A stretch of 64,000 bases of DNA from assembly GCA_017307375.1 (NCBI GenBank), contig JAFKFH010000009.1, positions 62,001 through 126,000 of the forward strand, in the 5' to 3' direction. The stretch comes from Alphaproteobacteria bacterium. Its GTDB lineage: Bacteria; Pseudomonadota; Alphaproteobacteria; Ferrovibrionales; Ferrovibrionaceae. Below the pieces are notes generated by a model, which was not told the DNA's origin, did no database searches, and saw nothing but the letters and a program-made list of their open reading frames with translations. Within the stretch, counting starts at the first letter, position 1. Every line of letters begins with the position of its first letter. The translations under genes and the position numbers were made by a program. Below are positions 3,922 to 37,580 of this stretch, in pieces.

Positions 3922-5634
<1,713 letters not shown>

Positions 5635-5635
5635 G

Positions 5636-5941
5636 TCACAGCGCTCCGTCGATCTGGTTGTCGAAACCGAAGACCTTGCGGTCGCCGCCAAGGGCGACCA
5701 GGGTCACGGTGCGGGTCTGGCCCGGCTCGAAGCGAACCGCCGTGCCGGCGGCGATGTCGAGGCGAAAACCGCGCGCCTGGGCGCGGTCGAACGACAGCGC
5801 CGCATTGGTCTCGAAGAAGTGGTAATGGCTGCCGACCTGGATCGGCCGGTCGCCGGTATTGGCCACGTCGAGCGTGACGGTCGGGCGCCCGGCATTGAGC
5901 TCGATCTCGCCGGGCTGGGGGAAAATCTCTCCGGGAATCAT
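5636..5941 (-). CDS. ureB: Urease beta subunit UreB
   Basis: A 101-residue structural subunit of the urease (UreABC)3 complex. It starts [20 protein letters not shown] and includes the conserved [19 protein letters not shown] segment and the ending [17 protein letters not shown]. It is a separate gene, as in most bacteria, not fused to ureA as in Helicobacter. It lies 11 bases after ureA and one base before ureC. Confidence 0.97.
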
Positions 5942-22283: not shown

Positions 22284-23413
22284 TGGCCCGCATCCTGTTC
22301 GTGGTCAACGAGGCGCTGTTCTTCACCACCCACCGCATGCCGATCGCGCTGGCGCTGATCGCCGCGGGGCACCAGGTCGACGTCGCCGCCCCGCCCGACG
22401 AGAAGCCGGCAGCCAAGATCCGTGCCGCCGGCATCAACTTTCACCCGATTCCGCTGGGCCGCGGCAGCCGCAATCCGCTGGGCGAACTGAAGCTGATCCT
22501 GGCCATTGCCGGCGTGCTGCGCCGGACCCGGCCCGACCTGGCCCATTTCGTGTCGATGAAGCCGGTCATCTGGGGCGGCATGCTGGCCCGGCTGATGGGC
22601 GTCCGGGCAGCCGTCTTCGCCGTCACCGGGCTGGGCTACATGTTCATCCGCGAGGGGCTGGCGGTCGCGGCACAGCGCACGATCCTGGCCGCGCTCTACC
22701 GTTTCGCGCTGGGCCACGCCAACAGCCGGACGATCTTCCAGAACGACGACGACCGCGACACTTTCCTGATCCGGCGCATGGTCGATCCGGCGAAAATCGT
22801 CATGATCCGGGGCTGCGGCGTCGCCCTCGACCAGTTCCGCGCCAGCCCCGAGCCGCCCGACGCCGATGTCGTGATGTTCCCGGCCCGGCTGATCGGCGAC
22901 AAGGGCGTGCGCGAGTTCGTGACGGCGGTCCAGCGGCTGAAGCCGCGTTATCCCCAGGTCCGCTTCGTGCTGGTCGGGCGTACCGATCCGCAGAATCCGA
23001 CGGCGCTGTCGGAGGCCGAGATTGCCCGGATGGTCGCGGCCGGCGACCTGGAATGGTGGGGGTTCTCGGCCGACATGCCGGCGACGCTGGCCCAGGCCAC
23101 GATCGTGGTGCTGCCCTCCTATCGCGAAGGCCTGCCGCGTGGGCTGATCGAGGCGGCCGCTTGCCAGCGGGCGATCGTCACGACCGACGTGCCGGGCTGC
23201 CGCGACGTCGTCCGGCACGAGGTGAACGGGCTGCTGGTGCCGGTCCGCGACGGCGAGGCGACCGCGACGGCGATCGCCCGGCTGCTCGATGCCCCCGCCC
23301 TGCGCCATCGTCTGGCCGCGGCCGGGCGCCAGATCGCCGAGGCCGAATTCTCGGTCGAAGGTTTCGTCGAGCAGAGCCTGGCCGCCTATCGCGCCGTCGG
23401 CTTCAATCCCTGA
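22283..23413 (+). CDS. Glycosyltransferase family 4-type protein
   Basis: A 376-residue GT-B fold glycosyltransferase. The N-terminal domain starts MARILFVVNEALFFTTHRMP, and the C-terminal nucleotide-sugar binding part contains VVLPSYREGLPRGLIEAAAC, the family's acidic EX7E-type motif. Similar proteins transfer sugars to lipid carriers in surface polysaccharide synthesis. It is translationally coupled to the preceding heparinase-like gene by TGATG. Its last 11 bases overlap the convergent dGTPase-like gene. Confidence 0.85.
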   Translation: MARILFVVNEALFFTTHRMPIALALIAAGHQVDVAAPPDEKPAAKIRAAGINFHPIPLGRGSRNPLGELKLILAIAGVLRRTRPDLAHFVSMKPVIWGGMLARLMGVRAAVFAVTGLGYMFIREGLAVAAQRTILAALYRFALGHANSRTIFQNDDDRDTFLIRRMVDPAKIVMIRGCGVALDQFRASPEPPDADVVMFPARLIGDKGVREFVTAVQRLKPRYPQVRFVLVGRTDPQNPTALSEAEIARMVAAGDLEWWGFSADMPATLAQATIVVLPSYREGLPRGLIEAAACQRAIVTTDVPGCRDVVRHEVNGLLVPVRDGEATATAIARLLDAPALRHRLAAAGRQIAEAEFSVEGFVEQSLAAYRAVGFNP

Positions 23414-24716
23414 CCAGGCCCTTGATCCGGCGATAGCGGCTGAGCGCGTAGGAATCGGTCGCCCCCGACACGAAGTCGGTGACCGCCATCAGCCAGCGAT
23501 AGCGCGGCGCGTCGGCCGCCGGCAGATCGGGCAGCAGCCGCACCAGCGCCTCGGCGCGCGGCGACAGCCGGACGTCGCGCCCGGCCGCCTCGCGCTCGGC
23601 CAGGGCGGCGCAGTGGACCTGCAGCAAGGTCTCGATGATCTCCGCACCGCCGATCTCGATCTCGTAGCGCTCGCGGGTCTGGAAGATGCGCTCGCGCGTC
23701 AGTTGCTCGATCTGCTGCAGCGTCGCGGCATGGCTGGTCTGCGACAGCAGGTCGCCCATTGCGACGCCCTCGGTGATCTCGGGTTCGCGCGCCAGGAACA
23801 CCTCGGCCGCTTCGTCGATCAGGGCGCCGATCGCCTTGGCCCGCAGATAGGTGACGGCACGCTGCGGTTCGTCGATTTCCTTGTAGCGCGGGGTCGGACC
23901 GCCGACGAGATCGAGCAGCAGCTCCTCGGCCTCGCGGAAATTGAGCCGGCCGAGGCGAAAGCCGTCCTCGATGTCGACGACGCGGTAGCAGATATCGTCC
24001 GCGGCCTCGAGCAGATAGGCCAGCGGATGGCGGCACCACGTGCCCGGTCCGCGCGGGATCAGCCCGACTTCGCCGGCCACGTCGGCGAACAGATCGGCCT
24101 CGGCCGTGAAATAGCCGAACTTGCCCTTGACCCGGCTGGCCGGGTCGGCCGAGCCGCGCGGATACTTGGCAAAGCTCGCCAGCGTCGCGCAGGTCAGGCG
24201 CAGCCCGCCGGCATCGTGCCAGGATTGCAGCCGCGAGACGACGCGGAACCCTTGGGCGTTGCCCTCGAAGTTCAGGAGGTCGAGGCGTTCGGCCTCGCTC
24301 AACCCGTCAAGGTAGCGGGCGCCGCCGGTGGCGAACCAGTGGCGCATCGTGTTCTCGCCGAAATGGCCGAACGGCGGGTTGCCGATGTCGTGGGCCAGGC
24401 AGGCGGCGGCGACGATATGGCCGAACTCGGCCGCCTCGATGTCGCGCAAGCGGTGGCGGTCGACGATGGTGCGGCCGATCGCGGCGCCGAGCGAGCGGCC
24501 GACGGAGGAGACCTCCAGGCTGTGGGTCAGGCGGGTGCGGACATAGTCGTTGTCGGGCAGCGAGTGGACCTGCGTCTTGTCCTGCAGCCGGCGGAAGGCC
24601 GAGGAGAACACCACCCTGTCCCAGTCCTTCTGGAACGGGCTGCGTTCGGGTGTAACCGCCTCGGCCCCGACATGGCCGAGACGGCGCGCGGAGAGAAGCC
24701 GGCGCCAGTCCATCAT
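23403..24716 (-). CDS. dgt: Deoxyguanosinetriphosphate triphosphohydrolase-like HD protein
   Basis: Hydrolyses dNTPs to nucleosides and triphosphate. The HD metal site is seen as RLTHSLEVSSVGRSLG and ACLAHDIGNPPFGHFGE, and the C-terminal KEIDEPQRAVTYLRAKAIG segment is typical. The 437-residue length fits the dGTPase type-2 subfamily common in alphaproteobacteria. Two adjacent ATG codons (24716 and 24713) are the likely starts; a TTG start at 24749 is less plausible. It is divergent from the interrupted dehydratase gene, so it marks the left native flank of the island. Confidence 0.9.
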   Translation of the reverse strand: MMDWRRLLSARRLGHVGAEAVTPERSPFQKDWDRVVFSSAFRRLQDKTQVHSLPDNDYVRTRLTHSLEVSSVGRSLGAAIGRTIVDRHRLRDIEAAEFGHIVAAACLAHDIGNPPFGHFGENTMRHWFATGGARYLDGLSEAERLDLLNFEGNAQGFRVVSRLQSWHDAGGLRLTCATLASFAKYPRGSADPASRVKGKFGYFTAEADLFADVAGEVGLIPRGPGTWCRHPLAYLLEAADDICYRVVDIEDGFRLGRLNFREAEELLLDLVGGPTPRYKEIDEPQRAVTYLRAKAIGALIDEAAEVFLAREPEITEGVAMGDLLSQTSHAATLQQIEQLTRERIFQTRERYEIEIGGAEIIETLLQVHCAALAEREAAGRDVRLSPRAEALVRLLPDLPAADAPRYRWLMAVTDFVSGATDSYALSRYRRIKGLVRD

Positions 24717-24801: not shown

Positions 24802-24981
24802 ATGTCGAAGGATTTGCGCACGGGACTTACCGCCTATGGCGACGAGAAGCTCTCGCTATTCCTGCACAACGCGTTTGGCGATTCGGCACCCGTAGACAGT
24901 CGCGCTCGACACTTCAAGTATTTCCTTCATCGCAGCAACATGATGAAATCCGCACCATTAACTCGTCGGGCCAGCGATTGA
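24802..24981 (+). pseudogene. Truncated 5' end of an IlvD/Edd-family dehydratase gene, now a leader ORF for druH
   Basis: The first 25 codons (MSKDLRTGLTAYGDEKLSLF, then LHNAF) match the start of the intact dehydratase at 34540: 18 of 25 residues and 54 of 75 bases agree. Most base differences are silent or conservative, so both copies evolved as coding sequence. After about 24876 similarity stops and the frame runs on for 34 unrelated codons to a TGA at 24979. A good ribosome site (GGGAGGAGCG) precedes the ATG. The stop overlaps the druH start as TGATG. The rest of the gene is missing on this side, so this is the left edge of the island. Confidence 0.75.
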
Positions 24982-27900
24982 TGCACACGCCCCCCTTATT
25001 ATCAGCCAGCATTGAACAACTCGAAAATAGCTTCGAGGCGGCGAGAGGCGACTACGCTCAATTGAAACTAATTGCCGACGCAATTCTGAAACATAAAGCA
25101 TCAAACGCAGTGCGTTTAAGCATAAAGGTAAATGCAGAAATGTTCCGGCTAAAGCGCGAGGCTGGAATACTTTCTTCACCTTCGAAAAAACTTACTGAAT
25201 TGCTAGGCCAGTTTCAGCTTCGTGCGCCAGACGGTAGACCGCTGCATCGCTACCGATTGGGTAAGGATGGTTACGATCAGCTATCAACATTCATGCGCCT
25301 GCGTGCTCCTCGCCTGGCAGACGGAAATTCCAACGACGCGGCACTGCTGGCCCTTTGGTCATCAGCTTGGTTCCGCCGAGAATATGATGGGAGTCTACGT
25401 AAATATAGTCAGCTTGCCTCAGCAATCGGCGCAAATATTACTGATGCGCAGTGGCGTGAATTATTGACGCAGGGACTTGAATGGTGGCAGCGCCCGCTCA
25501 TAGTACGTACGGGGAGACGCCATAGGTTGCTGACTATAGCGGTCGAGGGGGGGTTTCCCGCGCGCGTGCTTGAAGCCGGCCTTGGCTGGTTGCCGCGCTT
25601 TTTGAATGAAGTCGTCGGTCGTTTGCTCGGCGTCGCCGAAAATCCTTCGTCCGACGATGCCTTCGCCATGGCTGATGCTGCAAAACATCGACTGCGCGAT
25701 GCTTATCGCGAACAGGCTTTCATCGCACTCGCTGCCGACTTGGCGCTGGCAATTGTGAAATTGCGGCGCATCGCCGAGAGGACGTCTACGCCCGGTACGG
25801 CGCCCTCGGCCGTACTCGATCAGCTCCACCCCAACTGGCGCAATGAATTGCCGATTGCGGCCGATACGGATGCAGCTCGCAGGCTGGTAGATGGAATGCT
25901 CGCGGCCGAAAAGATCGCACGAGGCTTGGGTGGGGGGGCAGGCTGCGTGCGCGTGTTGCGGCGGAGGGTAGAAGGATGGAGCGCGGGGCTCAGGCTGTCT
26001 CTCGGGGGAGAACTCAAAGCGGCTGAACTGGCCGGCCTCGCGGCGCCTGGAACGAGACTAGGCGTACATCCCTATGGTGTGTTGGCACGTGCAGTGGGCG
26101 AAGAACTAGCCTTTCTCGATCCACCTGGTGAAGACGACGATAGTTGGCGGTTGCGTCCACTTACCGGCAGGACCGAGTTAGATGATGTGCCAATGGTGGC
26201 GCGCATTGAAGTCCTGATCCAGTCCCCCAGCGGGTTAGCTCGGGTAATGCCATGGCCCGGCGGCAGCCCCGAGCACAGTGACGTAATCACATTCGAGATC
26301 GAGGCCGATGACGCCGAAGGACCAACTGCGCTCGTGCTTGCCGCGCGCGGATCAGCGAGCCTGCGTGCCGTGCGAGTGGTGGTCACTGCTCCCGCCGATT
26401 GGTCTGTTCGCTGGGAGGACGAAGCTGTTGAAGGATCTCCCCATAGCATCGGTACAATCGACGATCGACGAAGGCTATGGCTTGCTGACAGGTCTGTGCT
26501 CGTGGAAAGCGCGGACGGGAGCTTACTCTATCGCATCCAAACTGGCGTGGACGAGGAGTCGCGCGACCGTATCGGGCTCGACGGTCACTCGCCGCAAGGC
26601 TTAGATGGTGCAGATGATTGGCCGCTTTTCGCAGGCCCGCCAACGGTCAATTGTTATCATGGGCGTACCCAAACGAAACCTGCAGACAATGAACTGCTCT
26701 GGCGCCAGGCACGCAGCGATCAGTGGCGCGAGTTGGCGCGGTCCCGACTTCCAGTCGGCGTAGTTGAGATCATGTGGCGTGACTCCAAGACGAGGTTCGT
26801 TCGTGACCGCGTTCGAGCAGCGACAATACCGCCGTCAGCACGGGTATTTCGCGAGCGCGATGGCGAAGGCTGGCGCTATAGCTTTCAAGGCTTCGGCAAA
26901 CTGGCGATCGCACCGGAGCCTGTCGCGGGACTGCATGCGGAGCGGCACTCCGAAACCGTCTTCACGCTCTCGTTCCGCAGCAATCCTGCGCGTCGCGTCA
27001 CCTTTGCGATAAAAATACCCAACAGCACCCATCAGATCCGTATCACGCTGCCCTTCCCGTTGCGCGATGGGATCGCGCATTGGAATGGTAAGATCGTGCA
27101 GCCGGGCTCGGAGATGACCCCAGCGCAATTGGCCGAGCTTGTCGCCTTTGGCGAGAGCCGCCTTACGCTCTGCTGCGAAGTCAAGAATGTCGAGAGCGCC
27201 TTTCCCGCACACTATACGCTTGGTGAACGAGAACTTGGCCTGCGACCGCTCGCGGATCGGGTTCGCAGTGACCTTGCTTCTGCTGGGATTGACACCTGGG
27301 TTGCACTCAGCATCGGCAATGGTGCTCCACCTTGGCGGATCAGGCTGTTTGATTGCGATATCCGCTGTGCGGATGGCATGGCGTCAATCGTAAAGCTTGG
27401 TCTCAATGAGCAACCGTTGATCTTGGCCGGGCGATCGGTCGCCGCGCCCTGTGAAGAGTATCGTTTGGCCGAGATCAGTGGTGAAGATGCGCTGAACCGG
27501 CATTCGATTATGCTTGCCGAGAGCATGACAGGAGCCTGGTGGGTATATTTGCGCAGCGATCGCACGGTTCGATCAAGACCGTCGATTGTCCTGTGTGCCG
27601 GCCCAACTCCTCCCACCGGCCATGGTCTGGCCGCAGCGGCAATCATAGCCGCACCGTCGGTACGACAAGCGGCGATCGTTGAACGATTGAACGCAATAGC
27701 TGCCGATGCGGATGGTATTGCAGAAGATGTTGCCTGGCTAACTAGGCTGACCGGTTCATTGGACGGGTTGCCGGCATCGACGTTTGATGTCCTGACAGCG
27801 CTTCCTCAGGTGCCGGGGGTGCTCGCGCGTCTACTCCTATCCGCCGATGACACTACCCGAGCGAGCATTTGGCGGCTTGAGATGGAGTTGCCCTTTATCT

Positions 27901-28430
27901 GGGCGGCACTGCCGCTGGAGGCATGGAGTTCGGCTGCCAACGCGCTTGGACGCAGCGTCATTGATCCGCTCCTTGCGGCGGGCTTGGAGTTGGCGCAGAC
28001 CGCCCCAATCGGCAAGCAGGTCATCGATAGCGCCTCCATCCGAACCGGTAATCTCGACCCCGTGATAGGCACCGCGTTGGTGGGCGCCGAGTTGCTCCCA
28101 AGACCTTCCTTGATCCCGTCAATACACGACGCTGCGCAAGGCTATGTGCGCCGCACGTTCGATCGCGGCGACATGGCTATCGGGCTGCCGAAGCAAACGA
28201 GCTTGTTCCGCACGCCGGAACTCGAACACCATCTTCCCGGCTCGTTCAAGACCACGTTCGACTTAATGCACCTGGAGGCGCTCGACGCTCCTATCGCCGC
28301 CGCCGTCGCGGCGAAAACCGACATCAAGCTGACGCGCGCGCAACTCCGGCGCTGTAAGGAGGCTATGAGGGCCGATCCTGTCTATTTCGCGGAGGGTTTC
28401 ACGGCGGCACTGCTGGGCACAGAACGATAG
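24981..28430 (+). CDS. druH: DruH-like protein, Druantia type III defence
   Basis: A 1149-residue protein with no recognised catalytic motif. Identification rests on context: type III Druantia consists of exactly two genes, a large protein of unknown fold (DruH, about this size) followed by the DruE helicase, and this pair has the same order and sizes. The N-terminal 150 residues look helical; the middle and C-terminus have mixed beta-rich segments. Codon use differs from the flanks, and a hand count gives 35% GC over 25081-25140 against 73% over 24661-24720, a clear sign of transfer. It has no ribosome site of its own and starts in a TGATG overlap; a TTG at 24978 is also possible. The name should be checked by profile search. 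Confidence 0.75.
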   Translation: MHTPPLLSASIEQLENSFEAARGDYAQLKLIADAILKHKASNAVRLSIKVNAEMFRLKREAGILSSPSKKLTELLGQFQLRAPDGRPLHRYRLGKDGYDQLSTFMRLRAPRLADGNSNDAALLALWSSAWFRREYDGSLRKYSQLASAIGANITDAQWRELLTQGLEWWQRPLIVRTGRRHRLLTIAVEGGFPARVLEAGLGWLPRFLNEVVGRLLGVAENPSSDDAFAMADAAKHRLRDAYREQAFIALAADLALAIVKLRRIAERTSTPGTAPSAVLDQLHPNWRNELPIAADTDAARRLVDGMLAAEKIARGLGGGAGCVRVLRRRVEGWSAGLRLSLGGELKAAELAGLAAPGTRLGVHPYGVLARAVGEELAFLDPPGEDDDSWRLRPLTGRTELDDVPMVARIEVLIQSPSGLARVMPWPGGSPEHSDVITFEIEADDAEGPTALVLAARGSASLRAVRVVVTAPADWSVRWEDEAVEGSPHSIGTIDDRRRLWLADRSVLVESADGSLLYRIQTGVDEESRDRIGLDGHSPQGLDGADDWPLFAGPPTVNCYHGRTQTKPADNELLWRQARSDQWRELARSRLPVGVVEIMWRDSKTRFVRDRVRAATIPPSARVFRERDGEGWRYSFQGFGKLAIAPEPVAGLHAERHSETVFTLSFRSNPARRVTFAIKIPNSTHQIRITLPFPLRDGIAHWNGKIVQPGSEMTPAQLAELVAFGESRLTLCCEVKNVESAFPAHYTLGERELGLRPLADRVRSDLASAGIDTWVALSIGNGAPPWRIRLFDCDIRCADGMASIVKLGLNEQPLILAGRSVAAPCEEYRLAEISGEDALNRHSIMLAESMTGAWWVYLRSDRTVRSRPSIVLCAGPTPPTGHGLAAAAIIAAPSVRQAAIVERLNAIAADADGIAEDVAWLTRLTGSLDGLPASTFDVLTALPQVPGVLARLLLSADDTTRASIWRLEMELPFIWAALPLEAWSSAANALGRSVIDPLLAAGLELAQTAPIGKQVIDSASIRTGNLDPVIGTALVGAELLPRPSLIPSIHDAAQGYVRRTFDRGDMAIGLPKQTSLFRTPELEHHLPGSFKTTFDLMHLEALDAPIAAAVAAKTDIKLTRAQLRRCKEAMRADPVYFAEGFTAALLGTER

Positions 28431-28443
28431 TGGGGAAATAGAT

Positions 28444-31400
28444 TTGCGCACGTTGACGCCATTTCAGGCGCTGGAAGAAATTCACCAACGGTCGGTCGAG
28501 GCAATCCTTGGTCTGAGCGGGCTCAACCATGCTGCGCTTGCCGCGGAGGTTCGACGCAAATTCGGCGGCCGGGACATCAGTTCCGGAGCCCTGTTGCAGG
28601 AGCCGATCCTCGAAGCTGCATTTCCCTTCATCGAAGCTGAGCCGACACTAGCTTCGCTTGCGGGCACGTTGCTCCACCCCAAGGTTATTGATGCACTTGA
28701 TCTGCCGGGCGAACCTCGAATCGGCAAAGACCGGCATCCCTATACGCATCAGCTTGAGGCTTGGCAGCACCTGACTGCTGTCCCCCCTCAGTCGATCCTC
28801 GTCACCAGCGGTACCGGCTCAGGCAAGACCGAATGTTTCATGGTCCCTTTGCTCGACGATCTGGCGAAAGAAGCCGAGGCGCAGCGCGAGCCGCTCTGCG
28901 GCGTACGTGCGATCGCGCTCTATCCGCTCAACGCACTCATCGCGAGCCAGCAGGACCGGCTAGGCAAATGGACCAGGCCGTTCGGGGGCAAGATACGTTA
29001 TGCCCTCTATAACGGTGAAATGCCCGAGGACGACAAGGATGCGCGCGAGCGCACCACCCCGGAGCAAGTTCTTTGCCGCCGCACTCTGCGGAGCAACCCG
29101 CCTCCCATTCTCGTCACCAATGTGACGATGCTCGAATATCTGACGGTGCGCCGGAAGGATCGGCCGATACTGGATGCCTCGCAGGGCAAGCTGCGCTGGA
29201 TCATTCTCGATGAGGCGCACAGCTATACTGGATCCAATGCGGCGGAAATCGCGCTGCTCCTGCGGCGCGTACTCCTATCCTTCGATGTGACGCCAGATCA
29301 GGTCCGATTCGTCGCCACTTCGGCGACAATCGGTGAAGGCGCCGATGTCACGGAAGACTTGCGGCGTTTTCTGCGCGATGTCTCGGGCGTGGCGGGGGAG
29401 CGTGTGCATGTCGTGGTCGGGCATCACCGTACGCCTCAGCTACCGCCGCCCGATCAGGAGAAGCGCCTTGGCAGCATCTCCGTGTCAGAACTTGACGCCG
29501 GTTCGGCCTTCGAGCGGCTTTCGCGTAATCCGGTGGTGCAGAATCAAGTAACCGAACTCACGCGCGGCGCACGCCCGTGGTCCGTGGTAGCCAGGGAACT
29601 GAGTGAAACGGGTGCGGAACCCGAAGCGCTTGCGCTCGCGCTGGCCCGTGCCGAAAAAGGCGGTGAGCGGCTGTTGCCCTTGCGAGTCCACGCGTTTCAT
29701 CGGGCCATTCCCGGCTTATGGACCTGCCTCAACCCCGACTGTACCGGACGGGCGGATGGCTGGCCCTTTGGCGGTATATTGCCGGAAGCGGTCGATAAAT
29801 GCCCTGCTTGCGACGGTCGGGTGCTACCCGTGGTGTCCTGTCGAAGTTGTGGCGAGCCCTTCCTCGATGCGATTGAGGAGAGTCGTATTCTGCGTTCGCG
29901 CGATGAAGATGAGCGCGAAGACGAGTATGCGCGGGATTCGGAAGAGGAAAGCGCGTCATCATCGGATGACGAAGAAGTGCGGTTAGCCGCTCCGGGGATC
30001 GAGCGCCTTATCGCCGCGCGCCCCTTACCCCATGCCCGCCCGCTGCACGTCGATCCGCACAGTGGCGTCATCGCCGACCGGCCGGGCGATGGATTTATCG
30101 CTCTATCGGCCCATGATCGCGAGGAACCTGAATTTTGTCCCTCCTGCCAGATAGCTGGCACAGAGAAGCAGCCGCGCATATTGTGGCCATTCCGGTTTGG
30201 CGCGCCCGCGATCTTGAGCAATGCAAGCCCGGTGCTGCTCGAGAGCACCGAGCCCTCGACGCCTGATCCTGAAGCCGAGCATTCTCCCCCTGCCGAAGGT
30301 CGACAATTGCTGTCGTTTACCGATAGCCGGCAGGGAACGGCTCGGTTCTCCGCGAAATTGCAAAACGCCGCCGAGCGAAACCATGTGCGCGCGCTGATCT
30401 ATTTCGCAGCGCAGGACTCCACGCGCGACGATCCGGCGAATGCAGCTGACTTGGCTCGTCTGGATGCCGCTATCGCAGCCCTCCGGGCGCATGGAGGTGT
30501 GGCGGCTGAGACAGCCTTGCCGCTTTTGGAGCAACAGAGGAAAGATTTGGCCAAGACCCCCGTTGGTCTGCTTTGGGAGACTGTACGGAGTCGGCTGATC
30601 GAGCGCGATGAAATCAGCTACTGGATGCGTAAGGTCTGGGCGAAACGCGACCCCGAACGTTTCGGCGATCCGGCGAAGGGACCGGCACGCTTTGCTGAAC
30701 TGATGCTGCTCCGGGAGCTCGCCCGCCGCACCCGACGGGCCAATTCGCTCGAGACCATGGGGCTAGCGAGCCTGCGCTTTGAGGTGATAGAGAATCTGCC
30801 TGATGCGAAAACGCCAGATGCATTGCGCTCCCGAGGAAAGATCATCCAGGATTGGCGCGATTTCCTCTACCTGAGCCTTACTATCAATGTGCGCGACTAC
30901 TTCGCGATTCGGATCGACGGACCCGACGCACATTGGCTGCAACCGGGTATCCCATCGAAACGGCTAATCGGTCCCAATGATGCTATCACCTCAAGGGCAG
31001 AGATTCGGTGGCCGCAGGTGCGGCCGGGCTATGTTGCGCAACGCGGCACTCTTCCACGACTGTTAGAGCTTGCGCTCGAGTTGAACGCGGACGAACGCGG
31101 CGATCGCGATATCATCAACGAAGTTCTTGAAAGGGCGTGGCTAGATCTCCGACCGCTGTTCACGACCACTGGCGGCAGTGACCTACGGCTCGATCTGGCC
31201 AATGCTCTAATCGCGCCCGTGGAAAAGGCATGGCGCTGCCCGGTCACGCGCCGTGTGCTCGATGCGACCTTCTGCGGCTATTCACCCTACGGCCTGCGAG
31301 CTGGAACGATGCGCAGGACAGGTTCGCGCGCAGAACCTATCGAGATGCCGCGACATCCCACCCCTTTCCTGAGGGAGCCTGGAGGCGAGGCGGATGTGCG

Positions 31401-34400
31401 CGAGTGGTTGTCGGATAACGAGCGCGTAGGTCAATTGCGAGCGACTGGGTTGTGGACAGACCTCCACGACCGGATTGCGCTTGGATCGCCCTATGCACGA
31501 GCGGCTGAACATTCGGCCCAACAGCCTTCGCGGCGCCTGCGCAATTATGAGGCCGAGTTTCGTCGTGGCGAGATAAATATCTTGAACTGCTCGACGACCA
31601 TGGAAATGGGCGTCGATATTGGCAGCGTATCGACAGTGATGATGACGAACGTACCGCCGTCGATCGCCAACTATCGGCAACGCGTCGGCCGCGCAGGGCG
31701 CCGGCGGCAGGCCACGGCGCTGGCTTTCACCTATTGCAAGGACACTCCGATCGAATGGGAAGCCTTCCGCACGCCGATACGCTTTCTCTTGCGCGCCGTC
31801 GCCGCACCGCGTGTTTCGCTGGACTCAGGCCCGCTGGTCCAACGGCATATCAATGCACTGCTGCTGGCCGCGTTCGTCCGAGAGCAGAATGGCGACGCGA
31901 CCACGACTAAGGCGGGGCCATTTTACGGGTTCCCGGCGGACTTGCGAGCGGAACGCCTGCCTGACCCGCCATCGGTGAGGTTCCGCACCTGGCTCACCAG
32001 ACCGAGCACACAGGAGGCAATGACCAAAGCTGTCAGCGAATTAGTACGTAGCTCTGTGCTCGAAAATGACAAGGGCCTGTTCGAGGGCGTTGCTGCTGCC
32101 ATCGAAAGCGCTGAAGCTGAATTTCGCGCCGAGTGGGACGGCTTGCAATCGCAGGCGGCCGGGCTGGATCGTGACACGGCGAAGAAGGCTATCGGCTTCC
32201 AGCTCCAGCGGCTGTGTGCTGAGTTTCTGCTATCCGACCTGGCCAATCGCGGAGTGCTTCCGGGGCACGGTTTTCCGACTGCCGTCGTCCAGTTTGTCCA
32301 CAAGGACGAGCCGGACAGTGATGAAGGAAATACCGAGGAAGGCAGCCCATTCCGGCGCCGCTTCTTCGCCAGCCGAAACCTGGACCAAGCGATGCGGGAC
32401 TATGCGCCCGGCGCCGACGTGGTGATCGACGGGCTGGTGTATCGATCGGCGGGGGTCACGCTCAACTGGAAGCGACCTGCGGGCGAGTCCGATGCCCGCG
32501 ACATCCAAAGCTTGGGCTATGTCTGGTACTGCAAAGGATGCGGCGCCGCCGGTACGCTTCATAGTCGGACCGACGAATGCCCGGAATGCGGAGTAACCGG
32601 CAACGCGCTCCGGCAACACGAGTATTTGCGGCCAGCCGGCTTTGCGGCGGAGCGGGAGCCCGCACACGCCGAAGCAGACACCGTTTCCTATGTGCCGCCT
32701 AAGCCGCCCATTGTTGCCGCGAGGGGGGCGAACTGGCATCCGCTACGGGTGCCAGAACTTGGGCGATCACGCACGACTGCCAACGGTTTGGTGTTTTACG
32801 CCAGTGCGGGAAGTGAACACAATGACGGCTATACGATATGCCTTCACTGTGGGCGAGCGCAGGCGGAAGGCGTATCTGGAAGTCCACCTTTCTCCGAGCA
32901 CAGGCCGCTCCGCTACACCAAAGCGGACGACGACGGGAAATGCCCCGGCGCGGCGAAACCATTCGCGATCAAGCAAAACCTTCTGCTCGGTCACGAGGTT
33001 CGCACCGACGTGTTCGAATTGCAGCTCGACGGACTCGATCAGCCAGGCACCGCATGGGCGTTTGGATCGGCGTTGCGCACGGCGCTCACGCGCGAACTCG
33101 GTGTCGAGCTAAACGAGGTGGGACTCTGGATTGAGCCTCGGCAGACCGCGATTGGAAGTCGGAACCAGACCCTGTTTCTGTTCGATCACGCAGCTGGTGG
33201 GGCCGGCTTCTCCGCGAGAGCGAAGGATTTGTTCGCGAAGCTGTTGAGTCCCATGCGCAACCTGCTCGACTGCAAGGTCGATGGTTGCGTCAATGGCTGT
33301 TCTGCTTGCATCCTGACGTCCGACTTGCACGACCAACAACGGCTTATCGATCGGCAGGCCGCGCTTTCCTTTCTCGATGGTCATTTACGTCTACTGGCGG
33401 TACCGGATTCCTCCGATCTGTTCGCGCCCGGTGCTAGCTTTAGCGACGATCTCGTGGACGAACTGGCTAGGGGGAGTAAAGCCGCAGTTGTCTGGGGCGA
33501 AACTCTCGATTTGCCCGGACTACACGGCGGCAACTTCCTCCGCTTGGCGGCTTCTCTCCAGCGTTCCGGGCATACACTCACCCTCATCCTGACACAGGCT
33601 GCCTTGTCCAAGATGGACGATGCCACGCGGCTCAGGCTTCGGGATCTGGTGGTCCGCTACGACATTACGCTGCGCCAAGGTTCGCCGCCGCGTTTCCAAA
33701 ATGGTGCTGTCGCGATAGCTGCCGTATCGAACGGACGGGCTGGTGAGATCTGGGCGACCCGTGACGGCAAGGCTTGCATTCTGGGTTCGCGGTGGGGCGT
33801 TCCCGCCGAGTTGCCAATACTGCGCGCAAATTGGGAATTTGAGGACGGTAGCGAGGCGCTTCATCGCAACACGTTGGAGCCGCGCGCCGACGCCGCGTTT
33901 GTGAGCTTCACAAAAGCATGTGACGGCCCACTTGCGGATTTTGGCAAACATATGCTCAAGCTGGTGGAGCCCATTCTTCAGCGTGTAGGTGGATGGCGAC
34001 CGGGCCACCTAGTTAAAGTCGAGTATTTCGATCGCTACCTCAAGTCTCCACTGAGCGTGCGCTTGGCATGTGAATGTATCGCTGCTCTTTCAAAGGCTAT
34101 CGGAAGTGCGGGCCAAACGCGGATGTCATTAGTGAGTGAGCCGTGGCGCCCTGCTTCTCGCTATGATGACAGGAGACCCTGGCAGGCGAATCACGATTGG
34201 CGATCTGACGATGACCGGACCAAGGCAACGGAGGCGGTTGCCGCTAGACTCGGCTTGAAGGGATCATTGACTCTTAGAAGGGACAGACACGCAAGAGAGA
34301 TGGTTCTTACGTTTGATGACTCAACGTCGGCCACACTAGTTCTTGATCAGGGATTTGGCAGTTGGACAGGCCCCAAGGGTATCCCACTGCGATTTGACTT

Positions 34401-34497
34401 CGACGCCGATGCACATGATCAGGCTATAAAATTGATGGAGCTCAATACGTTGATCCATGGGCCCGACGACCCGTCCTATATCGTTGCGCACCGATAG
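28444..34497 (+). CDS. druE: DruE-like helicase with DUF1998 domain, Druantia type III defence
   Basis: A 2017-residue superfamily 2 helicase. Walker A (TSGTGSGKTE) is at residues 121-130, the DEAH box at 256-259, and the second RecA domain carries MEMGVDIGSVSTVMM (about 1053) and YRQRVGRAGRR (about 1076-1086). Cysteine clusters near 427-475 and 1363-1390 look like zinc ribbons. The DUF1998 (MrfA-type) zinc site follows GGAGFSARAKDLF (about 1586) with four cysteines in DCKVDGCVNGCSAC. About 370 further residues of unknown role end the protein. A strongly acidic insert lies near 490-515. Anti-phage function is known for the family; the mechanism is not settled. The start is TTG with GGGGA 7 bases before, 13 bases after druH. 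Confidence 0.85.
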   Translation: MRTLTPFQALEEIHQRSVEAILGLSGLNHAALAAEVRRKFGGRDISSGALLQEPILEAAFPFIEAEPTLASLAGTLLHPKVIDALDLPGEPRIGKDRHPYTHQLEAWQHLTAVPPQSILVTSGTGSGKTECFMVPLLDDLAKEAEAQREPLCGVRAIALYPLNALIASQQDRLGKWTRPFGGKIRYALYNGEMPEDDKDARERTTPEQVLCRRTLRSNPPPILVTNVTMLEYLTVRRKDRPILDASQGKLRWIILDEAHSYTGSNAAEIALLLRRVLLSFDVTPDQVRFVATSATIGEGADVTEDLRRFLRDVSGVAGERVHVVVGHHRTPQLPPPDQEKRLGSISVSELDAGSAFERLSRNPVVQNQVTELTRGARPWSVVARELSETGAEPEALALALARAEKGGERLLPLRVHAFHRAIPGLWTCLNPDCTGRADGWPFGGILPEAVDKCPACDGRVLPVVSCRSCGEPFLDAIEESRILRSRDEDEREDEYARDSEEESASSSDDEEVRLAAPGIERLIAARPLPHARPLHVDPHSGVIADRPGDGFIALSAHDREEPEFCPSCQIAGTEKQPRILWPFRFGAPAILSNASPVLLESTEPSTPDPEAEHSPPAEGRQLLSFTDSRQGTARFSAKLQNAAERNHVRALIYFAAQDSTRDDPANAADLARLDAAIAALRAHGGVAAETALPLLEQQRKDLAKTPVGLLWETVRSRLIERDEISYWMRKVWAKRDPERFGDPAKGPARFAELMLLRELARRTRRANSLETMGLASLRFEVIENLPDAKTPDALRSRGKIIQDWRDFLYLSLTINVRDYFAIRIDGPDAHWLQPGIPSKRLIGPNDAITSRAEIRWPQVRPGYVAQRGTLPRLLELALELNADERGDRDIINEVLERAWLDLRPLFTTTGGSDLRLDLANALIAPVEKAWRCPVTRRVLDATFCGYSPYGLRAGTMRRTGSRAEPIEMPRHPTPFLREPGGEADVREWLSDNERVGQLRATGLWTDLHDRIALGSPYARAAEHSAQQPSRRLRNYEAEFRRGEINILNCSTTMEMGVDIGSVSTVMMTNVPPSIANYRQRVGRAGRRRQATALAFTYCKDTPIEWEAFRTPIRFLLRAVAAPRVSLDSGPLVQRHINALLLAAFVREQNGDATTTKAGPFYGFPADLRAERLPDPPSVRFRTWLTRPSTQEAMTKAVSELVRSSVLENDKGLFEGVAAAIESAEAEFRAEWDGLQSQAAGLDRDTAKKAIGFQLQRLCAEFLLSDLANRGVLPGHGFPTAVVQFVHKDEPDSDEGNTEEGSPFRRRFFASRNLDQAMRDYAPGADVVIDGLVYRSAGVTLNWKRPAGESDARDIQSLGYVWYCKGCGAAGTLHSRTDECPECGVTGNALRQHEYLRPAGFAAEREPAHAEADTVSYVPPKPPIVAARGANWHPLRVPELGRSRTTANGLVFYASAGSEHNDGYTICLHCGRAQAEGVSGSPPFSEHRPLRYTKADDDGKCPGAAKPFAIKQNLLLGHEVRTDVFELQLDGLDQPGTAWAFGSALRTALTRELGVELNEVGLWIEPRQTAIGSRNQTLFLFDHAAGGAGFSARAKDLFAKLLSPMRNLLDCKVDGCVNGCSACILTSDLHDQQRLIDRQAALSFLDGHLRLLAVPDSSDLFAPGASFSDDLVDELARGSKAAVVWGETLDLPGLHGGNFLRLAASLQRSGHTLTLILTQAALSKMDDATRLRLRDLVVRYDITLRQGSPPRFQNGAVAIAAVSNGRAGEIWATRDGKACILGSRWGVPAELPILRANWEFEDGSEALHRNTLEPRADAAFVSFTKACDGPLADFGKHMLKLVEPILQRVGGWRPGHLVKVEYFDRYLKSPLSVRLACECIAALSKAIGSAGQTRMSLVSEPWRPASRYDDRRPWQANHDWRSDDDRTKATEAVAARLGLKGSLTLRRDRHAREMVLTFDDSTSATLVLDQGFGSWTGPKGIPLRFDFDADAHDQAIKLMELNTLIHGPDDPSYIVAHR

Positions 34498-34539
34498 AAC
34501 TGAGCATTGTGTTATAGCCGGTCCAGGAGAGGGGCAACA

Positions 34540-36234
34540 ATGTCACGAGGTCTGCGCAAGGGCCTGACCGCGTACGGCGACGAAGGATTCTCGCTGTTCC
34601 TGCGCAAGGCCTTCATCAAGGCGATGGGCTATTCCGACGATGCCCTCGATCGCCCGATCGTCGGCATCGCCAACACCTACAGCGACTACAACCCCTGCCA
34701 CGGCAACGTGCCGGCGCTGATCGAGGCGGCCAAGCGCGGGGTGATGCATGCCGGCGGCATGCCGATGGTGTTTCCGACCATCTCGATCCATGAGAGCTTC
34801 GCCCACCCGACCTCGATGTACCTGCGCAACCTGATGGCGATGGATACCGAGGAGATGATCCGCGCCCAGCCGATGGATGCGGTGCTGCTGATCGGCGGCT
34901 GCGACAAGACCCTGCCGGCGCAGATGATGGCCGCCGCCTCGGCCGACCTGCCGACGGTGCTGCTGCCGACCGGGCCGATGGTCGTGGGCCACCACAAGGG
35001 CGAGGTGCTGGGCGCCTGCACCGATTGCCGGCGGCTGTGGGCCGCCTATCGCGCCGGCCAGATGGATCAGGCCGAGATCGAGACGGTATCGGGCCGCCTG
35101 GCCCCGTCGGTCGGGACCTGCATGGTGATGGGCACCGCCTCGACCATGGCCTGCCTGACCGAGGCGATGGGACTGAGCCTGCCGATGAGCGCGGCCGCCC
35201 CGGCGGTGCATGCCGAGCGCGTGCGGCTGGCCGAGGCCAGCGGCCGGCGCGCCGCCGAGATGGCGATCGCCGGCGGGCCGCTGCCATCGGACCTGATCAC
35301 GCCGGCGTCGTTGCGCAATGCCATGGTCGTCATGCAGGCGCTGGGCGGATCGACCAACGGCCTCGTCCATCTCGCCGCCGTCGCCCGCCATGCCGGGCTG
35401 AAGGTCGATCTCGACCAGTTCGACCGCATCGGGCGCGAGACCCCGGTGCTGGTCGACCTGAAGCCGTCGGGCCATCACTACATGGAGCATTTCCATCATG
35501 CCGGCGGCCTGCCCCGGCTGATGCGCGAGTTGACCGACCTGCTCGATCTCGCCGCGCCGACGGTCGCCGGCGGCACGCTGGCGGATGTGGTCGCCGGGGC
35601 CGAGGAGGTACCGGGCCAGGACGTGATCCGGCCACGCGGCCGGCCGCTGAAGGCACAGGGCGCGATGGCGGTGCTGCGCGGCAATCTGAGCCCGCGCGGC
35701 GCGGTGATCAAGCAGTCGGCCGCCTCGCCCGCGCTGATGAAACATACCGGCCGGGCCGTGGTCTTCACCTCGCTCGCCGACATGGCAAAGCGGATCGACG
35801 ACCCCGATCTCGACGTCAACGCCGACGACGTGCTGGTCCTGCGCCAGGCCGGGCCGCGCGGCGCGCCTGGCATGCCCGAGGCCGGCTATCTGCCGATTCC
35901 GAAGAAGCTGGCGCGTACCGGCGTCAAGGACATGGTCAGGATCTCGGACGCGCGGATGAGCGGCACGGCCTTTGGCACCATCGTCCTGCATATCGCGCCG
36001 GAATCGGCGGCGGGCGGCCCGCTGGCCCTGGTGCGGGACGGCGACCTGATCGAGCTGGACGTCGCCGCGCGCAGGCTGGAACTGAAGGTCGATGCGGCCG
36101 AGTTGGCCCGCCGCGCCGCCGAGACCGACCATGCGGTGCCGCGCCCGGCGCGCGGCTACGCCCGGCTCTACCACGACCATGTGATGCAGGCCGATGACGG
36201 CTGCGACTTCGACTTCCTCGGCGCCGCCCCGTGA
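34540..36234 (+). CDS. IlvD/Edd-family dehydratase, probably for a sugar acid
   Basis: A 564-residue iron-sulfur dehydratase. Cluster cysteines are C53 (YNPCHGN), C121 (GGCDKTLPAQ) and C194 (VGTCMVMGTAST). The family includes dihydroxy-acid dehydratase, phosphogluconate dehydratase and pentonate dehydratases such as L-arabonate dehydratase; the sequence looks more like the pentonate group, but the substrate is uncertain. The gene directly follows druE (42 bases after its stop) with AGGAGAGGGG before the ATG. Its first 25 codons are a diverged copy of those at 24802, so its 5' end may have come with the island. The body of the gene has native high-GC codon use. Confidence 0.85.
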   Translation: MSRGLRKGLTAYGDEGFSLFLRKAFIKAMGYSDDALDRPIVGIANTYSDYNPCHGNVPALIEAAKRGVMHAGGMPMVFPTISIHESFAHPTSMYLRNLMAMDTEEMIRAQPMDAVLLIGGCDKTLPAQMMAAASADLPTVLLPTGPMVVGHHKGEVLGACTDCRRLWAAYRAGQMDQAEIETVSGRLAPSVGTCMVMGTASTMACLTEAMGLSLPMSAAAPAVHAERVRLAEASGRRAAEMAIAGGPLPSDLITPASLRNAMVVMQALGGSTNGLVHLAAVARHAGLKVDLDQFDRIGRETPVLVDLKPSGHHYMEHFHHAGGLPRLMRELTDLLDLAAPTVAGGTLADVVAGAEEVPGQDVIRPRGRPLKAQGAMAVLRGNLSPRGAVIKQSAASPALMKHTGRAVVFTSLADMAKRIDDPDLDVNADDVLVLRQAGPRGAPGMPEAGYLPIPKKLARTGVKDMVRISDARMSGTAFGTIVLHIAPESAAGGPLALVRDGDLIELDVAARRLELKVDAAELARRAAETDHAVPRPARGYARLYHDHVMQADDGCDFDFLGAAP

Positions 36235-36350: not shown

Positions 36351-37580
36351 ATGCGCAGCACCTATCTCGCACTGGCGGCGATCACCGCCGGCATCGCGAT
36401 CGTCTCGATCGGCTCCGGCCTGGTCGGTAACTACGTCCCGCTGCGCCTGAACCTCGCCCAGACGCCCACGCCGATCATCGGCGTCGTCACCACCGGCTAT
36501 CCGCTGGGCTTCCTGGTCGGCTGTCTGACCGCGCCGTGGATCATCCGCCGCGTCGGCCACATCCGCGCCTTCGCCGTCCTGTCGGCACTCACCGCGACCG
36601 GCTGCCTGTCGCTGGCCATCGACATCGAGCCGGCGATGTGGACGGTGATCCGCACGCTGTCGGGCTTCACCTCGGCCGGGCTGTTCGTCATCGCCGAAAG
36701 CTGGATGAACGAGCAGGCGCCCAACGACCAGCGCGGCCGCATCTTCGGCGCCTACATGGTGATCACCAAGCTGGCCTATGGCGGCGGCCAGCTGCTGCTG
36801 ATGGCGGCCGATCCGCTGAGCCTAGCCCCCTACATGATGATCGCCGCCTGCTATTCGCTGTGCCTGGTGCCGGTCGCCTTCACCAATGCGCCGAGCCCGC
36901 GGCCGCCCGAGCGCGCCGCACTGAACCTGCCCTGGCTGTGGCGGCTGTCGCCGGTCGGCGTGATGGCCTGCATCGTCGCCGGCATCTGCAACACCTCGAT
37001 CGTCTCGATCGGGCCGGTCTATGCGGCGGACCTCGGCTACGACATCAGGGACATCGCCATCTTCACCGCGACGATCCAGTTCGGCATCATGGTGTTCCAG
37101 TATCCGATCGGCCTGATCTCGGATCGCTTCGATCGCCGCAGCGTGCTGATCGGCGTGGCCGGCACCACCGCCCTGGTCGGGCTGGCCATCGCCCTGGCCG
37201 GGCACAAATCCTTCTGGATCCTGCTGGGCCTGTCGTTCGTTTATGGCGGCGTGTCGGGAACCATCTACACGCTGGGCGTCGCCCATGCGGCCGATCGGGC
37301 CGAGAAGTCGCAGCTGGTGGCGATGTCGGGCGGCCTGCTGCTCGCCTGGGCGCTGGGCTCGATCCTCGGGCCGGTGCTGGCGACGTCGACGATGGCCCAA
37401 CTGGGTCCCGCCGGCCTGTTCTTCTTCACGATCGCGATCACCGCCCTGCTGATCCCGTTCGTCCTGTTCCGCATGCGCCGCCGCGAACCGGCCCAGCAGG
37501 AACCCCAGGCCCATGTCGGCGCGCCCGTGCCGACCGCGCCGGGCCTCGATGCCGGCGGGGCCAAGGGCCGGGCGGAGTGA
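36351..37580 (+). CDS. MFS transporter, YcaD-like
   Basis: A 409-residue major facilitator protein with twelve predicted membrane segments. Visible family features include AESWMNEQAPNDQRGRIFGA in the N-terminal half and GLISDRFDRRSVLIG between helices 8 and 9, the segment typical of YcaD-type transporters. The last 30 residues are a hydrophilic tail. The substrate is unknown. It may be linked to the upstream dehydratase (gap 116 bases). Its stop overlaps the DUF445 start (GTGA). Confidence 0.85.
   Translation: MRSTYLALAAITAGIAIVSIGSGLVGNYVPLRLNLAQTPTPIIGVVTTGYPLGFLVGCLTAPWIIRRVGHIRAFAVLSALTATGCLSLAIDIEPAMWTVIRTLSGFTSAGLFVIAESWMNEQAPNDQRGRIFGAYMVITKLAYGGGQLLLMAADPLSLAPYMMIAACYSLCLVPVAFTNAPSPRPPERAALNLPWLWRLSPVGVMACIVAGICNTSIVSIGPVYAADLGYDIRDIAIFTATIQFGIMVFQYPIGLISDRFDRRSVLIGVAGTTALVGLAIALAGHKSFWILLGLSFVYGGVSGTIYTLGVAHAADRAEKSQLVAMSGGLLLAWALGSILGPVLATSTMAQLGPAGLFFFTIAITALLIPFVLFRMRRREPAQQEPQAHVGAPVPTAPGLDAGGAKGRAE

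What the first reader, a model, noticed from the sequence alone, without database searches (positions are those of the whole stretch)
24802..34614. Island with duplicated, diverged 5' end of a dehydratase gene at both borders
The first 25 codons of the dehydratase at 34540 are also present at 24802, at the far side of the island (54 of 75 bases, 18 of 25 residues the same). Both copies have a start codon and a good ribosome site, and the differences are mostly silent or conservative, so each evolved as the start of a real gene. The left copy stops at about 24876. Joining it to the codon after 34614 would recreate a complete dehydratase frame with no loss. This looks like insertion into the 5' end of a metabolic gene by an element that carries its own replacement 5' end, as known for SXT elements in prfC. 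However, no integrase is present in the island. A tandem paralogue partly deleted by the insertion is the alternative.
Basis: partly seen in the sequence, partly recalled or inferred. Interest (0 to 1): 0.8.

Follow-up and report, generated by a model that had tools for sequence, protein, structure and literature searches.

The report
Phage-defence operon beside duplicated gene start
A two-gene bacterial anti-phage system (Druantia type III) sits between a decaying leftover copy of the first 25 codons of a dehydratase gene and the intact gene itself; the repeat is real, but it looks like a passive by-product of a gene insertion, not like a self-inserting element that brings a spare gene start.

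Summary
The repeat is real: 24802-24876 and 34540-34614 share 54/75 bases and 18/25 residues (tblastn E about 6e-6 at genome scale; no other copy in the genome). The island is only a complete Druantia type III operon, druH (24981-28430) and druE (28444-34497), with about 160 bp of other sequence; no tyrosine integrase was found on the contig. Two corrections. (1) The left copy is a decaying relic: at sites conserved in 96 dehydratases, ten changes are unique to it, none to the right copy, with a near-neutral silent/replacement mix. Both copies share two residues that no other dehydratase examined has together, so both probably come from this lineage. (2) In two other genera of the family, dgt lies directly beside the MFS gene, without dehydratase or Druantia; the segment new to this genome includes the dehydratase, and the predicted empty site was not seen. 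No same-genus genome is held. The relic's 59-codon frame ends on druH's ATG (TGATG), suggesting translational coupling (inferred). An SXT/prfC-like insertion is not supported; partial duplication at acquisition, or a truncated tandem copy, fits better.

The parts
23403..24716 (-). dgt, dGTP triphosphohydrolase; left chromosomal neighbour
   Evidence: NCBIfam NF002205 above its cut-off
24802..24876 (+). Left, truncated copy of the first 25 codons of the dehydratase; decaying relic
   Evidence: 54/75 nt, 18/25 aa to 34540-34614; departs from residues invariant or nearly so in 96 orthologs
24802..24981 (+). 59-codon leader ORF that begins with the relic; its stop TGA (24979-24981) overlaps the druH ATG (24981-24983)
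   Evidence: sequence; coupling is inferred
24981..28430 (+). druH, Druantia type III (1149 aa from the ATG)
   Evidence: PADLOC DruH3 E=1.4e-210, nearly full length; NCBIfam YjiT_fam (STY4851/ECs_5259) above cut-off; 63% identical homologue in G185 whose aligned start supports this ATG
28444..34497 (+). druE, Druantia type III helicase (2017 aa), DEAD/DEAH helicase domains and MrfA Zn-binding domain
   Evidence: PADLOC DruE3 E=0, residues 6-2014; Pfam PF00270, PF00271, PF09369
34498..34539 (+). 42-bp gap holding the ribosome site of the intact dehydratase
   Evidence: sequence
34540..34614 (+). Right, intact copy of the first 25 codons; no unique departure from the family consensus at conserved sites
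34540..36234 (+). Intact IlvD/EDD-family dehydratase (564 aa)
   Evidence: NCBIfam NF004784 (PRK06131) 866 bits, cut-off 539; Pfam PF00920, PF24877
36351..37580 (+). MFS transporter; its homologue lies directly beside dgt in two other genera of the family
   Evidence: Pfam MFS_1; synteny in G001 and G009

Best explanation
A horizontally acquired Druantia type III anti-phage operon (druH-druE) lies between a partial duplicate of a dehydratase gene's 5' end and the intact gene. The duplicate was made in this bacterial lineage, either as a partial duplication when the DNA joined or as a tandem dehydratase copy whose body was replaced by the operon. The intact right-hand copy stayed under selection. 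The left copy lost its function and is decaying, but its start codon and ribosome site now head a short leader ORF that ends on the druH start codon, so it probably helps translate druH. Shown: the repeat, the gene content, the decay bias, the shared rare residues, the stop/start overlap, and the dgt-MFS order in relatives. Inferred: the order of events, non-site-specific joining, and translational coupling.
For: Complete DruH and DruE and nothing else in the island. Third-position GC: druH 0.60 and druE 0.65; dgt 0.90, dehydratase 0.91, MFS 0.93. At codons 4-25, sites conserved in at least 80% of 96 orthologs: ten changes unique to the left copy, none unique to the right, three shared; left changes 10 replacement to 3 silent (0.77), against a neutral expectation of 0.85 replacement. 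Ala11 plus Glu15 occur together in both copies and in none of the 96 orthologs. No tyrosine integrase on the contig. G001 and G009 have dgt and MFS head to head with about 90-100 bp between. The druH ATG has no GGAG-type site before it but overlaps the leader stop (TGATG), while the homologue in G185 has GGAGG upstream.
Against: Left and right differ by 28%, so the left copy is no closer to the right one (49/66 bases) than to the nearest outside ortholog (50/66); a duplication must be old or the relic must have drifted fast. Over all 17 changed codons, 10 are silent, so some past selection on both copies is possible. The Ala11/Glu15 argument rests on two residues. No same-genus genome is held, so the order of events is not observed. 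The promoter scan found no sigma-70-like promoter before either copy.
Confidence: 0.5

Rival explanations
1. [quoted passage not shown]
For: The geometry fits: 5' fragment, cargo, then a complete gene, in frame at codon 25/26. SXT/R391 insertion in the 5' end of prfC gives a hybrid, working PrfC (PMC7251087).
Against: No recombinase gene and no room for one in the island; none of nine PF00589 matches in the genome is on this contig; no identical core longer than 8 bases in register, against a 17-bp SXT site; the homologous Druantia pair in G185 lies in an unrelated context; no second 5' fragment near dehydratases in about 100 other loci.
Confidence: 0.1
2. Specifically a tandem pair of dehydratase genes existed here (a sub-case of the best explanation); acquisition of Druantia deleted all but the first 25 codons of the first one.
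For: Left copy with its own start and ribosome site; rare residues shared by the two copies suggest within-lineage duplication; decay of the left copy.
Against: No genome examined has tandem dehydratases of this type here; dgt is followed by MFS in the two relatives with conserved order. The left copy diverges from the right one as much as from other genera.
Confidence: 0.25
3. Homologous recombination with DNA from a related donor in which Druantia already lay upstream of the dehydratase; the left copy is the stump of the resident gene.
For: Dehydratase composition is host-like while Druantia is not; the whole Druantia-dehydratase segment is new relative to dgt-MFS in two genera; dehydratases of this type are patchily distributed and the window copy has no well-supported place in the tree.
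Against: No donor with this gene order was found in 80 named genome loci with up to 10 kb flanks or among druH relatives.
Confidence: 0.25

Closest known systems
Druantia type III (DruH-DruE)
   Same: Both proteins, their order and nearly full-length matches to the DruH3 and DruE3 models; two-component systems of this type are experimentally characterised (PMC13316683, PMC13192584).
   Different: Reported Druantia III islands in E. coli sit in prophage-like elements with integrases and 16-20 nt direct repeats at tRNA genes (PMC12458937); here there is neither.
SXT/R391 ICE in the 5' end of prfC
   Same: Foreign DNA between a 5' stump and a complete gene with an intact reading frame.
   Different: No integrase, no 17-bp identical site, no mobility genes, and the stump looks like a decayed same-lineage copy.
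Partial gene duplication at an acquisition breakpoint or a truncated tandem paralogue
   Same: One functional copy, one short decaying copy of the 5' end only.
   Different: The foreign operon between them appears to use the relic as a translated leader (inferred).

Membership tests
Druantia type III | DruH protein present, near full length | tested here: met
   PADLOC DruH3 E=1.4e-210, 10-1143 of 1150 aa
Druantia type III | DruE large helicase with MrfA/YprA-type Zn-binding domain, adjacent to DruH | tested here: met
   DruE3 E=0, 6-2014 of 2017 aa; PF00270, PF00271, PF09369; 13 bp between the genes
Druantia type III | Anti-phage activity | not testable with these tools
   Needs plaque assays in a laboratory strain
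SXT-like 5'-end integrating element | Integrase encoded in the element | tested here: not met
   Only druH and druE in the island; no PF00589 match on the contig
SXT-like 5'-end integrating element | Identical attL/attR core of about 17 bp | tested here: not met
   Longest in-register exact match 8 bases; longest shared word in the border segments 9 bases. A once-identical core could have decayed
SXT-like 5'-end integrating element | Empty site is the intact target gene at this locus | tested here: inconclusive
   G001 and G009 have dgt-MFS without any dehydratase; no same-genus genome held
Truncated tandem paralogue | Relatives with two tandem dehydratases at the locus | tested here: inconclusive
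   None seen, but no same-genus genome is held

The most novel reading that the evidence does not exclude
A defence operon without any recombinase of its own lands in the 5' end of a metabolic gene, keeps that gene working through a second 5' end, and captures the original start codon and ribosome site as a translated leader coupled to its first gene, as a general way for defence operons to insert safely and be expressed.
Probability: 0.07. Interest if true: 0.55.

Novelty: new member of a known kind. Interest (0 to 1): 0.27.

Why it matters
It is a clean, small example of how a defence operon can be acquired without a recognisable mobile element, at a breakpoint marked by a partial gene duplication. 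It shows that a duplicated 5' gene end at island borders is not by itself evidence for a 5'-end-replacing integrative element: polarising the differences against orthologs separates a decaying relic from a replacement end.

Tried and rejected
Search for other Druantia III pairs with duplicated gene starts: in 385 class and 399 phylum genomes only one close druH relative (G185, 63%) turned up, in a different context next to other genes; none in viral contigs; six weak plasmid-collection matches of about 25-30% identity, contexts not followed. Search for a second dehydratase 5' fragment upstream of dehydratases in about 100 loci: none convincing. Search for upstream or downstream extension of the repeat: nothing above shuffles. 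Promoter and terminator scans at both borders: none found. tRNA genes: none in the window. Tree of the dehydratase: window copy unplaced among alphaproteobacterial orthologs, so vertical or horizontal origin of the dehydratase stays open.

Full report
OBSERVATION. The repeat exists exactly as described: 24802-24876 against 34540-34614, 54 of 75 bases and 18 of 25 residues identical, no gaps. With the right-hand 25 residues as query, the left copy is found at E=5.6e-6 scaled to a genome-sized database, and there is no third place in the window. A whole-genome search with the 59-residue left ORF finds only itself and the dehydratase start. Upstream of the ATG and downstream of codon 25 the two places are no more alike than shuffled sequence.

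CONTENT OF THE ISLAND. Between the two copies lie two genes. The first (24981-28430) is DruH of Druantia type III and the second (28444-34497) is DruE, both matched over nearly their full length; DruE carries DEAD/DEAH helicase, helicase C-terminal and MrfA Zn-binding domains. The rest is about 104 bp before druH, 13 bp between the genes and 42 bp after druE. There is no integrase or transposase, and none of nine tyrosine-integrase domain matches in the 7.54-Mb genome lies on this contig. Third-position GC is 0.60 and 0.65 in druH and druE, against 0.90-0.93 in dgt, the dehydratase and the MFS gene, so the operon is foreign and the dehydratase is not obviously so. The closest druHE pair found (G185, another family of the same class; 63% and 74% identity) sits in an unrelated context.

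THE LEFT COPY IS A DECAYING RELIC. The first 25 residues of 96 dehydratases were compared with both copies. The left copy departs at residues that are invariant or nearly so (Gly4 to Asp, Lys7 to Thr, Phe17 to Leu, Arg22 to His), where the right copy keeps the consensus. At codons 4-25, counting sites where at least 80% of orthologs agree, ten changes are unique to the left copy, none to the right, and three are shared. The left copy's changes there are 10 replacement and 3 silent, against a neutral expectation of 85% replacement. That set of sites is biased towards replacement sites, and over all 17 changed codons 10 are silent, so a period of selection before the decay is possible. The two copies share Ala11 and Glu15, each found in 2 of 96 orthologs and never together, which suggests that both come from this lineage. 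On bases alone the left copy is no closer to the right one than to the best outside ortholog (49 against 50 of 66), so this rests on two residues.

THE LOCUS IN RELATIVES. No same-genus genome is held. In two other genera of the family, G001 and G009, dgt stands head to head with an MFS gene homologous to window 36351-37580 (38% and 48% identity; the G009 gene is the best match outside the own genome), about 90-100 bp apart, with neither dehydratase nor Druantia between them. G001 has no close dehydratase of this type, and G009 carries a fragment of one at the end of another contig beside unrelated genes. The segment that is new in this genome therefore runs from about 24.74 to 36.3 kb and includes the dehydratase. 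Other family members have other neighbours upstream of dgt, so the dgt-MFS order is supported by two genera only.

HOW IT PROBABLY WORKS. The left relic retains an ATG and a GGAGG-containing ribosome site. Its frame runs 59 codons and its TGA overlaps the druH ATG by one base (TGATG, 24979-24983). No GGAG-type site precedes the druH ATG, whereas the G185 homologue has GGAGG upstream of its start. This suggests that druH is translated by coupling to the relic's leader ORF. The step is inferred; the promoter scan found nothing at either border, and an open frame of this length is not rare by chance.

COMPARISON WITH THE KNOWN. As a system this is Druantia type III. Type III Druantia has been characterised as a two-component defence with DruH as a likely sensor and DruE as a helicase-nuclease (PMC13192584) and with an essential DruH-DruE interaction (PMC13316683). 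In E. coli, Druantia III islands are described inside prophage-like elements flanked by 16-20 nt direct repeats at tRNA genes (PMC12458937); nothing of that kind is present here. SXT/R391 type 1 elements integrate at a 17-bp site in the 5' end of prfC and restore a hybrid working gene (PMC7251087); two defining features, an integrase and an identical core, were tested here and not met.

VERDICT. Real repeat, ordinary defence operon, and a plausible but unproven history in which a partial 5' duplication or a truncated tandem copy marks the breakpoint. The SXT-like reading is not supported.

Noticed in passing
window 5193-5479 (+): Rfam 5_ureB_sRNA match (113.8 bits) lies antisense to the ORF 3922-5691 on the minus strand, which by length and position may be a urease large subunit; the match may reflect conserved urease coding sequence and not an RNA gene.
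   Followed up: no
L146 (G007:C4:160800-180700; match at contig 170694-170885): Remnant similar to DruH (59% over 64 residues, two in-frame TGA) in another member of the family, apparently a decayed Druantia copy.
   Followed up: no
L126 (G014:C52:112816-114147): dgt match with one in-frame TAA in this relative; possible pseudogene or assembly error.
   Followed up: no
L145 1557-3611: In G185 the Druantia III pair is followed, on the opposite strand, by a 684-aa ORF that looks like a UvrD-type helicase and by a 314-aa ORF that looks like an HNH protein, possibly a defence cluster (read by eye, no family search).
   Followed up: no
L151 10164-13628 (G001): Two MFS genes of the same family flank a predicted permease beside dgt, suggesting local duplication of the MFS gene in that genus.
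   Followed up: partly
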